Source: a virus
Virus record (IMG/VR): IMGVR_UViG_3300035670_001410
Location: 1 to 21,249 of that record
DNA length: 21,249 nucleotides
Strand: one strand, 5' to 3'
Position numbers and translations under genes: made by a program. Shown here piece after piece: positions 5,426-16,649 of this stretch (positions within the stretch are counted from its first letter, which is position 1; each line of letters begins with the position of its first letter). The notes beneath the pieces were generated by a model. The model did no database searches. It saw nothing but the letters and a program-made list of their open reading frames with translations, and was not told the DNA's origin.

Positions 5426-6502
5426 CTAATCTTTAGACGGTACAAATTCAAATGACCACCATTTCTGTTTATTTCTACAAGATTTGCTCCTTTTATTATC
5501 TGCAAAAAAAACAGCCCCATGAGTAAAATATCCTTCATTTATCAATTTCCAAATTTTTGATTTCATTCTTGTTTTATAAAAAGCGAGGCTAGAAAATTTT
5601 GCTAAAATTCTAAAACCTTGTTCATGCATAAAAAAACTAGTTACATCTACAAATTTTTGTCCTAATCCAAACCCAACATAATCTGGATGAATGACGCAAC
5701 GATTAGAGTGAAGAATCATTTTTTTTGTTTTATCAACATGTGGAACATAATTGCTATACGCTGTAAAACCAATCTGTTTATTATCATCAAACAATCCAAA
5801 AAAATAATTTTTCCCACCAGCTAAGCGATTATTTAAATAATGATACTTGCTAAAATATTTCCAAGATTTTCCGTTTTGAAGTTGTCTAACATCAAATTTA
5901 AGTTTTTCTGTTCGTGGTTTCCGAAGACCCCTCCGAAATTCTTGAATATTACAATCTATAATCCAATCAGGATCAATCCATTCAATTTGTTTTGAAAATT
6001 TTCTTGCATGCTTTTGGATTGTATGACTCATAACTTTTGCGACTGTTCTATCAACCACAGATGTCCATTCATCAATGACACAGATTTTTTCTTCATTGTT
6101 TGCTAATTGCAAAGCAATTTCTGCTCTAAATTTTTGACCGTTTGATAAAGTTTTGGCAGGTCTAACCCAACAAGGAACTTGAGACAAACCAACCGAACAT
6201 AAATATTTAGCACATTCATCATAAGAAAATTTTTTATCAAATTGTTCAAGGACTGGAATATCTTCTTTTAATAAATTACTAAAACAATCTTCAGTATATA
6301 AATATTTTGCTAAAGTTGTTTTTCCAGATCCGCTAGACCCTACAATTAATCCAATATTCCACAATTCAGGAAATTCGCATTCTACTTTAAAATAATGTTT
6401 TAACTTTTCAGACAAGTTGAGATCAACGCTATTAGCAGCTTTAATACAACGAAAAGTTTCAAATGGTTCGCTAATTAATTCAAATTCTATTATATTCTTC
6501 AT
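5426..6502 (-). CDS. ABC-type ATPase fused to a GNAT acetyltransferase domain (COG2401-like; possible DNA-modifying acyltransferase)
   Basis: A 358-residue two-domain protein. Residues 1-190 are an ABC-type ATPase: Walker A GSSGSGKT (55-62), signature LSNGQKFRAEIA (119-130), Walker B KICVIDEW (139-146). Residues about 205-340 look like a GNAT fold: KYHYLNNRLAGG, then FFGLFDDNKQIGFTAYSNYV (strands), and CVIHPDYVGFGLGQKF (269-284), which resembles the acetyl-CoA pyrophosphate loop (R/Q-x-x-G-x-G/A). This ABC-plus-acetyltransferase architecture is a known orthologous group (COG2401), and the phage Mu Mom DNA modifier is also an acyltransferase of GNAT fold, so a role in modifying DNA or RNA is inferred, not shown. 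The start overlaps the ParB-like stop (ATGA, 6499-6502) and lacks its own ribosome binding site, so the two are co-translated. The gene is AT-rich and GATC-poor relative to its neighbours. Confidence 0.8.
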   Translation of the reverse strand: MKNIIEFELISEPFETFRCIKAANSVDLNLSEKLKHYFKVECEFPELWNIGLIVGSSGSGKTTLAKYLYTEDCFSNLLKEDIPVLEQFDKKFSYDECAKYLCSVGLSQVPCWVRPAKTLSNGQKFRAEIALQLANNEEKICVIDEWTSVVDRTVAKVMSHTIQKHARKFSKQIEWIDPDWIIDCNIQEFRRGLRKPRTEKLKFDVRQLQNGKSWKYFSKYHYLNNRLAGGKNYFFGLFDDNKQIGFTAYSNYVPHVDKTKKMILHSNRCVIHPDYVGFGLGQKFVDVTSFFMHEQGFRILAKFSSLAFYKTRMKSKIWKLINEGYFTHGAVFFADNKRSKSCRNKQKWWSFEFVPSKD

Positions 6503-7047
6503 GCTATTTTTACCGCATAGCCTTGATTTTTTAATGATTCAAATAGGTCTTGTTGTTGCGTTTCATTTTCTAGTTCAATAATTAACAGATATTCATTAAT
6601 GATTCTACCTTTGCTAATAAAGTTAGATTGAACATTATTATTAAGAAAATGATTTTCATTAAATCCTATCACATCTAATTTTTCTAATTCAAATTCATCT
6701 ATACTTAACTTTAGATCTTCAATCTCTATTTTTAAAAGATCGTTATCCCACGTGCTGAGTTCTGCAAGTCTATTATCAGCAATGACATAGGCTCGTCTCT
6801 GAGCATCACTAAGATGCTCGGCTCTAACACAAGGCACTTCTTTCCATCCCAAGATCAGAGCGGCTTTATAGCGTCCGTGGCCTGCAATAATCCCGTTATC
6901 TTTATCGATCAAGATAGGAGACAGAAACCCAAACTCTTTTATGCTCTCTGCAATCTTTTGAATCTGATCTTCTGAATGAAGCCTAGGATTATTCTTGTAT
7001 GGTAAGAGCTTTGATAGCTCTATGGTTTCAAACTTTAGATCTTTCAT
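6499..7047 (-). CDS. ParB-like nuclease/DNA-binding domain protein, partner of the ABC-GNAT protein
   Basis: 182 residues. The N-terminal ParB/Sulfiredoxin-type domain shows LLPYKNNPRLH (14-24) and the signature IIAGHGRYKAAL (53-64), then VPCVRAEHLSDAQRRAYVIADNRLAE (71-96), as in the ParB-like modules next to phage DNA methylases and modification enzymes. The family includes CTPases, nucleases and DNA binders; the biochemical role here is unknown. Residues 150-182 (NEYLLIIELENETQQQDLFE, then NQGYAVKIA) form a small alpha/beta unit. Translation couples to the ABC-GNAT gene by ATGA; AGGAAAGTTAAAAT precedes the ATG. Residues 1 to about 120 are encoded in GATC-rich DNA (6 sites in 358 bases) and the rest in GATC-free AT-rich DNA, suggesting a junction inside the gene. 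Confidence 0.85.
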   Translation of the reverse strand: MKDLKFETIELSKLLPYKNNPRLHSEDQIQKIAESIKEFGFLSPILIDKDNGIIAGHGRYKAALILGWKEVPCVRAEHLSDAQRRAYVIADNRLAELSTWDNDLLKIEIEDLKLSIDEFELEKLDVIGFNENHFLNNNVQSNFISKGRIINEYLLIIELENETQQQDLFESLKNQGYAVKIA

Positions 7048-7799: not shown

Positions 7800-8495
7800 T
7801 TACACGCTCGTAATTTCTGGCTCTTGCATCGAGCTCATGACTTTTACCAAAGCTCTCCAAGCTCCAAGATCTGCTTCGTAATCTGTGATCGGTGCTTTTG
7901 TTGTGCTGATGATCCTAGACCATCTTTGAATCTGTGCTCTAAAGTCTTCTTTGATAGCTGTAGGGATCTCAAGCTTATCTGTGCGCTTATGTTTAATTTC
8001 CTCTTCCTCGATCTCTGGTTCTTCATCTTCCTCGATTTCTAACTCGTCTTCAAACATCTCTTTGATCTTATCGGCATCTATCTCAGGAAATTCAAATCTA
8101 GTTTCTAGCACATCGACATTAATTTCAGATTCTTTTAGATACTCGGCTAGGCTCTTCTCAGTAACAACGCCGTATTGAGAAGCAAAGGCAAGAACTCTCT
8201 CACGAGCTTGACGCTCCGAGGTTGCTTCGATCCATACCACAGGGAGAGCAGGAATCTCGTAGCCTTGAGCCTTGAGCTTAGAGAGTACTGTTAGACGTTG
8301 GTGTCCGTCTAGTATCACATGACTAGTCTCTCCTTTCCAGACAAAGAAAGGCGCAAGAAAGCCTTGTTCAAGAATTTCTTTCTTGAGTTTTTCCTCTGCT
8401 TCTTTGGGAAGCTTCTTAAGCTCTCCTTGCAACGGAACAAGAGACTCAAGAGCTACTGTATCGGCAGCTTGACAAGCGATTTTAATAGTCTTCAT
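7800..8495 (-). CDS. ParB-like protein with acidic C-terminal region
   Basis: 231 residues, the second ParB-type protein of the window. Residues about 15-100 hold the ParB-like core: LESLVPLQGELKKLP, then EILEQGFLAPFFVW and the signature VILDGHQRLTVLSKL (60-74), then LPVVWIEATSERQARERVLA. Residues 155-170 are almost all acidic (ELEIEEDEEPEIEEEE) and would form a flexible linker or DNA-mimicking stretch; a helical domain follows (RAQIQRWSRIIS). Such proteins occur beside phage replication genes and beside modification enzymes; whether this one acts on DNA is not shown. The ATG at 8495 overlaps the upstream stop (ATGA), with GGAGGATCTAAA in front. Confidence 0.8.
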   Translation of the reverse strand: MKTIKIACQAADTVALESLVPLQGELKKLPKEAEEKLKKEILEQGFLAPFFVWKGETSHVILDGHQRLTVLSKLKAQGYEIPALPVVWIEATSERQARERVLAFASQYGVVTEKSLAEYLKESEINVDVLETRFEFPEIDADKIKEMFEDELEIEEDEEPEIEEEEIKHKRTDKLEIPTAIKEDFRAQIQRWSRIISTTKAPITDYEADLGAWRALVKVMSSMQEPEITSV

Positions 8496-12622: not shown

Positions 12623-14431
12623 TCAAAAATCAGAAAAAGCTCTTCTTTCGATCTCACTTTTAGCCATGAGATATTCTGGCTTTCCCTTGACCCACTCTTG
12701 ATTGAGCAGCCACGTAAGATAGAAATAGGGTACCTCAGAAATGTGGTAGTCTTTATATTTTCCAAACGAAATATAACCACCTTCTGCTTTTTTGTTCATA
12801 TTGAGCCGTAATTCGTTTATGAGCCTAGAGCATTCATGCTTTGTAGCATCCTTGGGGACATCGATGTTATTTCGTGCGAGATAGGCGATTTGTTTATCAG
12901 TGGCAGGATAGAATTTTTCACGGCCAGATAAGAATCTAGCATCGTCTGGATAGTACTGGTCAAGCCACCACTCGCTAGAATTTAACGAGCCTTCAAGCGT
13001 TCGAGACGAATCGATGAAGGTTACCTCTTGCCCACTTCTCCACTCAGCTATATAATCGCCATGACCCGATTGATAGACTACGATTGAGCCAGAATTAAGA
13101 GCCATTCGATATTCGTCATTTAAGACCCACCATAAATATGATCGATCAAGAGTACGTCCAGATTTTGGACTCTCCAGAATACTCATCACATGAGATCTAT
13201 CGCACGCACTCCATAATTCTGATTGTACCGTGATAGTCTGGCCTCTGAGTTGCTCAAGAAACCAAAGACGATCTGCTCTCAAGGATTGACCCATTGAGTC
13301 CCATTGAGGAGGCAACCCCCAAGTTGAGGCAATAGATACCCGCCCCTCAGAAGCACGATCTTGGAAATCGATCAATAGGCAAGTGGGTTTTGATTCTAAC
13401 TTTCTAAGAACTCTACCAGCCATCTGCTCAGCTAAAACTAGGCTCTTAGTCGGACGAGTAAAAAGCCCAAGGTTGACTTGCTCGACATCCCAACCCTCGG
13501 TCAACACTCCACAGCTTGTTAGCATGACATGGTTTTTAGAATATCTTAGAGCGTCATCAGCTTTGCGCCTATCGTCAATCGATGTGCCTGCATGGATAGC
13601 ATAACTCTCCCAGCCATCGGCTTGAAAGTCTTTAGCGAGTTGCAAAGCGTGATCTACGTCAATCGCAAAACATACTCCCTTGGCTAGTGTCTGGCCATGG
13701 GATCTTATTAACTCGCCAATAGCATCGTTTGCCGTAGCAAGGATAAGCTCGTTTCTCTGGTCAACATTCAAAACCTCAGCAAGCTGGCTAGCTACATAAT
13801 CACCCTGAGCCGTTTTCACGCCCTTTAAACTCTCGTATGTGTCAACACGAAAGTGATGAGGATTAGAAAGCTCTCGCTCGTCAACCATGAGTCCTTTGTC
13901 AATCTCAAATCCAACAGCCTCAAACACCGCTCTTAAGTTTTCGCCATCTCCACGGAAAGGCGTAGCAGTAAGACCTAGATGTCTAGTGGGCTTTATCGTC
14001 TCGTAGAAGTTGAGATAGCTATCAGCAAGACAATGATGAGCTTCATCCGTGATTAAGAAAATATCTCGTTTATCCGCCTTTAAATCGCTTGCAAATTTTT
14101 CGAGACGCTTCCCTTTCATACTCGCAATCGAAACGCTCAGGACATCGATAAGGGAGATATCGGCGCACTTCTGCTCGGACATCTCAATTCCAACTCTCAA
14201 AGTAGGATCTACCATGTTCACTTTTTGCGCATTTTGGGTAACTATGTTTTCCCTGTGAGCTAGGATGATCGTCAGAAAGCCTTTATCTCGAAACCGTGAG
14301 GCTAGGTATCCGCTCACTATAGACTTGCCAAAGCCAGTGGGAGCTATACCTAGATGAGAGCTTCCCTTTTCCCAGTTCTGCCGATACTGCTCAAGAGCCT
14401 CGATCTGGAAAGACCTTAATTTTATTTTCAT
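12623..14431 (-). CDS. SF2 DEAH-box helicase with a C-terminal FGKYK-type domain
   Basis: 602 residues. Motifs in order: Q-like RSFQIEAL (6-13), Walker A APTGFGKS (30-37), Walker B DEAH (129-132), motif III LTATP (154-158), then the second RecA domain with TEGWDVEQVNL (311-321) and motif VI QMAGRVLR (336-343). This places it with phage SF2 helicases related to the R subunits of restriction enzymes and UvsW-like proteins, which unwind branched DNA or R-loops. The C-terminal region has PATDKQIAYLARNNIDVPKD and, at residues 551-577, ISFGKYKDYHISEVPYFYLTWL, a pattern seen in the DUF3820/exonuclease X C-terminal family. The start has AAAGAGGAGAACTC before the ATG, immediately after a strong terminator, so expression may depend on readthrough. 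Probably acts in phage replication/recombination. Confidence 0.88.
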   Translation of the reverse strand: MKIKLRSFQIEALEQYRQNWEKGSSHLGIAPTGFGKSIVSGYLASRFRDKGFLTIILAHRENIVTQNAQKVNMVDPTLRVGIEMSEQKCADISLIDVLSVSIASMKGKRLEKFASDLKADKRDIFLITDEAHHCLADSYLNFYETIKPTRHLGLTATPFRGDGENLRAVFEAVGFEIDKGLMVDERELSNPHHFRVDTYESLKGVKTAQGDYVASQLAEVLNVDQRNELILATANDAIGELIRSHGQTLAKGVCFAIDVDHALQLAKDFQADGWESYAIHAGTSIDDRRKADDALRYSKNHVMLTSCGVLTEGWDVEQVNLGLFTRPTKSLVLAEQMAGRVLRKLESKPTCLLIDFQDRASEGRVSIASTWGLPPQWDSMGQSLRADRLWFLEQLRGQTITVQSELWSACDRSHVMSILESPKSGRTLDRSYLWWVLNDEYRMALNSGSIVVYQSGHGDYIAEWRSGQEVTFIDSSRTLEGSLNSSEWWLDQYYPDDARFLSGREKFYPATDKQIAYLARNNIDVPKDATKHECSRLINELRLNMNKKAEGGYISFGKYKDYHISEVPYFYLTWLLNQEWVKGKPEYLMAKSEIERRAFSDF

Positions 14432-15037: not shown

Positions 15038-15847
15038 TTATCTGCTCCATTTGCTATGTAGTTTAAAACCTTTTGATAGAACTAACTCTTGATATGCTTT
15101 CTTGACGTGGTCAAAGTTTAGAGGCATCTCGCCTAGCTCTTCTAGGAAGCCTGTGCGGTCTCCTGCTGCCGTTGATGGGTCTCCTTTAAATGAGATCGTA
15201 TAACGTCCTGATGCGTCTTTGCGAACATGACCCATCGAACATATTACTCCGTCAAGATATTGAGCAGCTTTGTTTCCTTTGAAAGTTGGCTGCCATCTTG
15301 TGATCTCTTTCTTAAGACCCTTGTCGGTAAGCAACATAATCTTTTCAGAAGTGCAATGAGATATAAACGTAACATCTACGATAGACATCAAACGCCTCAT
15401 CCAAACTTCCCATTCCTCACGAACCTCTTTCCACGTCTTCCCGAAATCATTCTCAGGAGGATAGTCAATCTGTTTTTTGAGACAGACATAGTTTAAACAA
15501 TGAGCATATAGAGAATCTACAATATCAATTGTAACGCTCTTAATGTTCTTTTCCTCAAGGCTTCCATTCTTTCTTTGCATGTAGAGTTGGCGCACTAGAT
15601 ATTGAAAGCACTCCCATTGAGAGCCTGCCTCTAATCGCTCTTTTAACTCGTCGCCTAGAAAGATAGATCTAGTTTGCACAAAGTCTTGAGCTGGCTCTGT
15701 TGCGATAAACAACGTAGCTGGATCACCTGCGCAAAAAGTTGTCTTGCCTGATTTAGGCTCACCAAATACTAGCTTGATGAGTTCATCAAATGGAGGGACT
15801 CCGATTTCTCGGATACTACTAGGGATCAAATCAGTTTCATCATTCAT
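15038..15847 (-). CDS. Sak4-like RecA-fold ATPase (phage recombination protein)
   Basis: 269 residues. Walker A FGEPKSGKTT (28-37), ATEPAQDF soon after, then Walker B-like SVTIDIVDSL (104-113), and a VDVTFISHCTSEK strand with a His in the sensor position. This is the short RecA/RAD51-core ATPase (AAA_24/Sak4) that many phages use for single-strand annealing and recombination, working with their own SSB, which is the next gene. The protein has no N- or C-terminal extension of note. The ATG at 15847 has a weak purine-rich leader (GAAAGAAAGAAATT); the first gene of the unit would be the small ORF at 15922-16008 or this one. Regulation is through the divergent region 16009-16142. Confidence 0.85.
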   Translation of the reverse strand: MNDETDLIPSSIREIGVPPFDELIKLVFGEPKSGKTTFCAGDPATLFIATEPAQDFVQTRSIFLGDELKERLEAGSQWECFQYLVRQLYMQRKNGSLEEKNIKSVTIDIVDSLYAHCLNYVCLKKQIDYPPENDFGKTWKEVREEWEVWMRRLMSIVDVTFISHCTSEKIMLLTDKGLKKEITRWQPTFKGNKAAQYLDGVICSMGHVRKDASGRYTISFKGDPSTAAGDRTGFLEELGEMPLNFDHVKKAYQELVLSKGFKLHSKWSR

Positions 15848-16142: not shown

Positions 16143-16649
16143 TTGAACATTTGCGGTATTGACTCAGGTAGAAAAGGCGGATGCGTCTTGATAGACCAGC
16201 ATTTGAACGTAATCAGCACATTCCAGCTTAGATATAACCTAGATGGAGTGCTAGTCTACCAACCTTTAATTGATTGGCTGACATCTCAGCCCATAGATAT
16301 AGTAGTGCTTGAGCAGGTAAGAGGCAGAGGAGGAGATCTAGCGGGTTGGGGAGCTACTGGCAACTTCAATTTTGGCGCAAACTATGGCCAGCTACGAGTC
16401 ATCCTAGAGATCTTTATCAATCGTACTAGCTGCAAACTCAAACTCGTAACGCCTGCCTCATGGACTAGCATGACCAAAGGCTATGAAGGTAAGCACCCAA
16501 AAGAAAGAAGTGTGAGCTACTATAACAAGCATTGGCCTCATGACCCTTTGCCTAAAAATAAAGTGGGAAAGGTAAGAGATGGCTTATGTGATGCGCTACT
16601 GATTGCAACTTGGTTTTTAAAAATTGAATCGTTAAAGAAAGGAGCCTGA
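16143..16649 (+). CDS. RuvC-like Holliday junction resolvase
   Basis: 168 residues from a TTG start with AAAGGAG eight bases upstream. RNase H-fold catalytic acids are visible: D7 in CGIDSGRKGG (first strand), E57 in DIVVLEQV, and D146/D150 in VRDGLCDALLIAT, matching the RuvC pattern H/D-x-x-D-A-L-x-I-A. An aromatic Gly-rich stretch (GWGATGNFNFGANYGQL) lies in the middle, as in RuvC proteins. It would resolve four-way junctions formed in phage recombination and clear branches before packaging. It and the next gene are the only plus-strand genes in the window, although the replication partners lie on the minus strand; it is divergent from the Sak4 unit. Confidence 0.85.
   Translation: MNICGIDSGRKGGCVLIDQHLNVISTFQLRYNLDGVLVYQPLIDWLTSQPIDIVVLEQVRGRGGDLAGWGATGNFNFGANYGQLRVILEIFINRTSCKLKLVTPASWTSMTKGYEGKHPKERSVSYYNKHWPHDPLPKNKVGKVRDGLCDALLIATWFLKIESLKKGA

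What the first reader, a model, noticed from the sequence alone, without database searches (positions are those of the whole stretch)
5426..7047. ParB-like protein coupled to an ABC-ATPase/GNAT fusion: candidate DNA-modification or nucleic-acid acetylation module
Seen: ATGA overlap and no own ribosome binding site for the ABC-GNAT gene; Walker A, signature and Walker B; GNAT-like acetyl-CoA loop. Known: ABC-acetyltransferase fusions (COG2401) exist, and phage Mu Mom is a GNAT-fold DNA modifier. Inferred: the ParB-like domain guides or activates an ATP-dependent acylation of phage DNA, perhaps to evade restriction. No methyltransferase is in the window, so this would be a stand-alone modification unit. 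A third partner could be the 55-aa zinc ribbon just upstream.
Basis: partly seen in the sequence, partly recalled or inferred. Interest (0 to 1): 0.75.

Follow-up and report, generated by a model that had tools for sequence, protein, structure and literature searches.

The report
Phage ParB–ABC–acetyltransferase gene pair
Two overlapping phage genes encode a ParB-like protein and an ATPase fused to an acetyltransferase. Many phages carry this pair, and it probably tags the phage's own DNA to protect it from bacterial restriction enzymes, although nobody has shown the chemical tag.

Summary
Genes 6499-7047 (ParB_N) and 5426-6502 (ABC ATPase + GNAT), both on the minus strand, overlap by ATGA. 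Structure prediction confirms both folds.

The pair is a widespread phage cassette, not a curiosity. ParB precedes ABC-GNAT in all 67 IMG/VR relatives with enough upstream sequence. One Gemmataceae protein fuses all three domains. A terminase-like gene family lies just downstream in 92 loci.

An ABC-GNAT DNA-modification system was already predicted in the literature, so this is a new member of a known, untested kind.

New support for a DNA-modification role:
- The ParB domain's nearest relatives are the N-termini of phage ParB-DNA-methyltransferases.
- In Porphyromonas prophages an ABC-GNAT cassette occupies the site where a sister phage carries Mom.
- A Microbacterium phage pairs ParB with Mom directly.

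Two refinements:
- The constant partner of ABC-GNAT is the ParB's ~35-40-aa C-terminal tail, a stand-alone mini-gene where the ParB domain is lost.
- Firmicutes phages encode the fusion in two frames, probably joined by -1 frameshifting.

The GNAT has no clear counterpart of Mom's SFAD...YQA motif, so it is not a Mom member. The upstream zinc ribbon is not conserved. The window's copy uniquely lacks the ATPase H-loop (57/57 others have it) and may be hydrolysis-defective.

The parts
5426..6502 (-). ABC ATPase-GNAT fusion protein, 358 aa
   Evidence: ORF; ABC_tran 4.5e-8, GNAT families; PHROG 11143 full length 7e-64; model pLDDT 84, Foldseek GNAT hits
6317..6340 (-). Walker A GSSGSGKT (residues 55-62)
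   Evidence: read directly; G55, S57, G58, G60 and K61 invariant in 58 members
6134..6148 (-). ABC signature LSNGQ (residues 119-123)
   Evidence: L119, S120, G122 invariant in 58 members
6065..6088 (-). Walker B KICVIDEW (residues 139-146)
   Evidence: D144 and E145 invariant in 58 members
5983..5984 (-). junction where 10 residues (relatives: e.g. VLLSCHYDVA), a core strand plus the H-loop His, are missing
   Evidence: alignment A1/A2: His present in 57/57 other members, absent only here; low pLDDT around residues 141-180
5528..5896 (-). GNAT domain (about residues 203-325)
   Evidence: Pfam Acetyltransf_7/1 and Foldseek
5834..5863 (-). family hallmark WKYFSKYHYL (residues 214-223) at the start of the GNAT domain; HY positions align with Mom's HY
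   Evidence: W214, F217, Y222, L223 invariant, H221 57/58; Mom alignment
5660..5689 (-). acetyl-CoA loop HPDYVGFGLG (residues 272-281)
   Evidence: P273, G277, G279, G281 invariant
6499..7047 (-). ParB-like protein, 182 aa
   Evidence: ParB_N 2.1e-10; N-terminal part resembles phage ParB-methyltransferases; Foldseek ParB/Noc
6502..6600 (-). C-terminal tail of ParB (residues 150-182), independently folded adaptor-like module
   Evidence: pLDDT 87-98 after a disordered linker; stand-alone 40-43-aa homologues directly before ABC-GNAT; phrog_28816
6499..6502 (-). ATGA stop/start overlap, probable translational coupling
   Evidence: sequence; same 4-nt overlap in 36 of 63 relatives in which a start next to the ParB stop was found

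Best explanation
The pair is one member of a phage ParB-ABC-GNAT cassette that most likely puts an acyl group on bases of the phage's own DNA before packaging, shielding it from restriction nucleases, as Mom does for phage Mu. Proposed working: (1) the two proteins are made in a coupled way [shown: ATGA overlap]; (2) the ParB tail docks on the ABC-GNAT protein and the ParB domain brings it to DNA or a nucleotide [inferred; supported by tail conservation and natural fusion]; (3) the ABC domain dimerises on ATP and clamps or distorts DNA, presenting a base [inferred from the fold]; (4) the GNAT, with an intact acyl-CoA loop and a near-invariant HY pair, transfers an acyl group, probably to an exocyclic amine [inferred; chemistry unknown]. 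In this record step 3 may be impaired because the H-loop is missing.
For: ParB upstream in 67 of 67 evaluable viral relatives, mostly overlapping, and in most bacterial-genome relatives. Natural ParB-ABC-GNAT fusion L147. ParB's best relatives are N-termini of phage adenine methyltransferases (PADLOC MTase_II 1.8e-32 over residues 5-129). Porphyromonas prophages: flanks 83% identical on both sides, Mom in one, ABC-GNAT cassette in the other. Enterococcus phages: Mom present in Q69 and absent at the matching point of 9184, which carries ABC-GNAT nearby in the DNA polymerase gene. Microbacterium phage Antuna pairs ParB with a true Mom. TerL-like gene family in 92 loci, mostly 1-4 genes downstream, 93/93 same strand. 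Both folds confirmed. ABC+GNAT DNA modification predicted earlier, naming phage pT24 (PMC7824862), whose protein is a relative of ours (37% identity).
Against: No nucleoside data from any phage with the pair was found. GNATs often acetylate proteins, tRNA or small molecules. The GNAT's closest solved folds are protein/small-molecule acetyltransferases; Mom (8bv8) is not in the first 50. Mom's SFAD...YQA motif has no clear counterpart (one search compared). The window's ABC lacks the H-loop.
Confidence: 0.62

Rival explanations
1. The ABC-GNAT acetylates a host protein or tRNA (host takeover or anti-defence), and ParB targets the complex to the nucleoid or to a protein.
For: Nearest solved folds are protein/small-molecule GNATs. 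Phage GNATs that acetylate host RNA polymerase exist (Rac, cited in PMC7824862).
Against: Exchange with Mom at one site; ParB kinship with DNA methyltransferases; placement beside terminase fits a DNA substrate better.
Confidence: 0.18
2. The cassette modifies or regulates the packaging machinery or DNA ends (terminase-linked), or is a partition/maintenance device, rather than protecting DNA.
For: Close and strand-constant association with a terminase-like gene; ParB fold.
Against: The cassette also lies away from terminase (after tail genes in Porphyromonas; near DNA polymerase in Enterococcus; among replication-type genes in this window). No ParA partner was recognised. The ParB domain is lost in some lineages.
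Confidence: 0.1
3. It is a phage-borne defence system against other phages (superinfection immunity).
For: ParB/ABC combinations occur in defence islands (general knowledge); weak PADLOC mad3 match in the ABC part.
Against: No nuclease or other effector was recognised in the cassette; found in a lytic phage, LE4; no PADLOC system model covers it.
Confidence: 0.07
4. This particular copy is a decaying or mis-assembled gene, so no function should be read from the window itself (compatible with the best explanation for the family).
For: The H-loop strand is absent only here; low model confidence around the gap.
Against: The reading frame is intact; GNAT motifs and ParB are fully conserved; the gap is an exact multiple of three.
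Confidence: 0.35

Closest known systems
Predicted GNAT + ABC-ATPase DNA acyl-modification system (Iyer/Aravind 2013, restated in PMC7824862 for Tenacibaculum phage pT24)
   Same: ABC ATPase coupled to GNAT; the pT24 protein is a direct relative (37% identity)
   Different: The 2013 paper was not held, so whether it describes the ParB link, the tail mini-gene or frameshifting could not be checked; this copy lacks the H-loop
Mom of phage Mu (Pfam PF25680, PDB 8bv8)
   Same: GNAT fold, HY motif at the same place, exchange at one locus; a small upstream partner gene overlaps in both (Com or the ParB tail)
   Different: No clear SFAD...YQA motif, canonical acyl-CoA loop kept, ABC domain added; profile match sub-threshold
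Phage ParB-DNA methyltransferase fusions (PHROG 498)
   Same: N-terminal ParB domain (2.9e-45 over residues 3-133)
   Different: The enzyme part is ABC-GNAT in a separate gene; the ParB carries an extra tail
DpdB/DndB, ParB-like helpers of DNA modification
   Same: ParB-like protein next to a DNA-modifying enzyme (described in PMC12839542 and PMC10853773)
   Different: Partner enzymes are unrelated (transglycosylase; sulfur transfer)

Membership tests
ABC-type ATPase | Walker A, signature and Walker B | tested here: met
   key residues invariant in 58 members, present in window
ABC-type ATPase | H-loop histidine | tested here: not met
   57/57 other members have it, the window protein does not
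GNAT superfamily | GNAT fold and acyl-CoA loop | tested here: met
   Foldseek E 2e-5 to HP0935; HPDYxGxGxG loop; family members up to 5.6e-10
Mom family (PF25680) | Pfam gathering score | tested here: not met
   16.6 bits versus cut-off 27.1; 3/58 members weakly
Mom family (PF25680) | HY motif at the start of the domain | tested here: met
   WxxFxxYHYL near-invariant; domain aligned by hhalign, P=73%
Mom family (PF25680) | SFAD...G.xYQA motif (from memory, contains Mom's proposed catalytic Asp and Tyr) | tested here: not met
   no clear counterpart; the region reads KFSS in the family
ParB/sulfiredoxin superfamily | ParB_N profile, GxxR motif and fold | tested here: met
   2.1e-10; G56/R59 conserved; Foldseek 6sdk 4e-8
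ParB/sulfiredoxin superfamily | CTP/ATP hydrolysis or nuclease activity | not testable with these tools
   needs a biochemical assay
ABC-GNAT DNA-modification system (Iyer 2013) | ABC ATPase coupled to GNAT, homologous to pT24 protein | tested here: met
ABC-GNAT DNA-modification system (Iyer 2013) | modified nucleobase in phage DNA | not testable with these tools
   needs mass spectrometry
COG2401 | match to the COG profile | not tested
   no COG library; no paper held mentions it

The most novel reading that the evidence does not exclude
ParB-ABC-GNAT is an ATP-dependent DNA acyl-hypermodification system with chemistry different from Mom. A ~35-40-aa adaptor (the ParB tail) is its essential and transferable partner, and many Firmicutes phages set the ABC : ABC-GNAT ratio by -1 frameshifting at the inter-domain linker.
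Probability: 0.4. Interest if true: 0.75.

Novelty: new member of a known kind. Interest (0 to 1): 0.5.

Why it matters
The system was predicted years ago and, as far as the searched papers show, never tested, yet it is widespread in phages of many hosts, several of them culturable (Leptospira LE3/LE4, Pasteurella Pmp13, Lactococcus P335, Streptococcus and Porphyromonas prophages). Locus exchange with Mom makes a DNA-modification role directly testable, and would add a new type of phage DNA protection with its own ATPase and adaptor.

Tried and rejected
Zinc ribbon as conserved partner: rejected (2/58, dissimilar). Membership in Mom: rejected by Pfam cut-off and motif. Defence system: no PADLOC system model. 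'ABC iron siderophore transporter' and 'DNA modification methylase' annotations in Gram-positive phages: misleading (in Oenococcus the latter is the ParB alone; Streptococcus products are similar). COG2401 text search: no paper held. Serratia phage eta as chemical evidence: the paper reports no modified base and no ABC or GNAT. Wheat-phyllosphere phage paper: no ABC or acetyltransferase mentioned. Leptospira LE3/LE4 paper: no DNA-chemistry data found. Iyer 2013 and Karambelkar 2020 could not be read.

Full report
Observation. Two minus-strand genes, 6499-7047 (182 aa) and 5426-6502 (358 aa), overlap as ATGA without a ribosome-binding site for the second. Pfam finds ParB_N (2.1e-10) and ABC_tran (4.5e-8); the GNAT hits are sub-threshold in the window protein but strong in relatives. 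AlphaFold models (mean pLDDT 84 each) match solved GNATs for the C-terminal half (E 2e-5) and CTP-binding ParB/Noc for the partner (E 4e-8).

Distribution. There are 78 relatives in IMG/VR, 57 phage records and 323 confirmed stretches in bacterial genomes, of which 80 were kept. ParB lies upstream in 67 viral loci; in the other 11 the match begins within 109 nt of a contig end, so 67 of 67 evaluable loci have it. In 36 of the 63 in which a start next to the ParB stop was found, the overlap is the same 4 nt. In one Gemmataceae locus the three domains are a single 611-aa protein (L147). By a strict adjacency rule 52 of 80 bacterial-genome loci have ParB directly upstream; most others have it slightly further off, are truncated, or have the tail only. 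A gene family whose representative is terminase large subunit occurs in 92 loci, mostly 1-4 genes downstream and always on the same strand; only the representative was tested. Many of the bacterial copies therefore look like prophages.

DNA-modification context. The ParB N-domain is most similar to the N-termini of phage ParB-methyltransferases. Two Porphyromonas prophages share 83% identical DNA on both sides of one site; one carries Mom, the other a tail mini-gene, ABC-GNAT and a formyltransferase-like gene. In Enterococcus, Mom lies between DNA polymerase and a small gene in Q69 and is absent there in 9184, where ABC-GNAT sits inside the polymerase gene. Microbacterium phage Antuna pairs ParB with a true Mom (Pfam 1.2e-46). 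A published survey states that ABC+GNAT was predicted earlier as a DNA acyl-modification system and names phage pT24 (PMC7824862), whose protein is our relative.

The tail. A profile of the last ~43 residues of ParB finds the tail in most ABC-GNAT-partnered ParBs but not in those partnered with Mom (L085) or with the Acinetobacter/Cupriavidus ABC (L081, L082). Some divergent ParBs next to ABC-GNAT (e.g. Nonomuraea) also fall below threshold. In Porphyromonas, two Bacteroidales loci and two faecal phages the tail is a 40-43-aa gene immediately before ABC-GNAT with no ParB domain detected nearby. In the model the tail is confidently folded after a disordered linker. I infer that it docks on ABC-GNAT.

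Frameshift. In Oenococcus, Streptococcus, Lactococcus P335 and Enterococcus 9184 phages, and in several IMG/VR loci, ABC and GNAT lie in 0 and -1 frames with 88-136 nt overlap. The conserved W..F..YHYL motif is read only in the -1 frame, and the ABC stop codon is embedded in the YHYL codons. In-phase A/T homopolymer heptamers are enriched in the overlap windows (12/306 versus 10/1735 positions, Fisher p=1.7e-5). The slip site is unclear in Streptococcus phages, and homopolymer assembly errors are possible for the metagenomic cases. The window's own gene is in one frame.

GNAT versus Mom. The HY motif and overall layout align (hhalign P=73%), but the acyl-CoA loop is canonical and Mom's SFAD...YQA motif has no clear counterpart. 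From memory, that motif holds Mom's proposed catalytic Asp and Tyr. It may work like Mom, but it is not a Mom.

Defect. The window protein lacks ten residues between I173 and E174, including the H-loop His found in 57/57 others; model confidence drops around there. From general knowledge of ABC ATPases, loss of this His usually blocks ATP hydrolysis but not binding.

Verdict. The most likely function is phage DNA acyl-modification for restriction evasion (0.62). Fold, pairing and context are shown; substrate, chemistry, adaptor role and ATP use are inferred.

Noticed in passing
L084, L208, L209, L210, L069, L070, L071, L073, L077: ABC and GNAT encoded in 0/-1 frames with slippery-type sequences at the linker; probable programmed -1 frameshift.
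   Followed up: partly
L181:7741-7872, L190:3756-3887, L207:2370-2498, L217:2501-2626, L218:2453-2575: Stand-alone 40-43-aa ParB-tail mini-genes directly before ABC-GNAT; annotated 'acr candidate' in Porphyromonas phages.
   Followed up: partly
L081:954-3671 and L082:4332-7082: Acinetobacter and Cupriavidus plasmid-borne phages: ParB, ABC, thioredoxin/glutaredoxin and a 317/325-aa GNAT-like protein as separate genes.
   Followed up: partly
L207:3625-4098 and L181:8992-9477: Formyltransferase-fold gene overlapping or directly following ABC-GNAT in Bacteroidota phages (Formyl_trans_N 1e-10 to 2e-13).
   Followed up: no
L210:3016-3846: In Enterococcus phage 9184 the GNAT frame continues into the displaced C-terminal 80 aa of DNA polymerase, as if the cassette had inserted into the polymerase gene.
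   Followed up: no
window 7800-8495: A second ParB-like protein (weak DUF262/GmrSD_N and ParB-methyltransferase matches) just upstream, function unknown.
   Followed up: no
window 12623-14431: 602-aa SF2 helicase (ResIII/DEAD) and, further on, a Sak4-like protein (15038-15847) and a Holliday junction resolvase (16143-16649, + strand): phage replication/recombination module.
   Followed up: no
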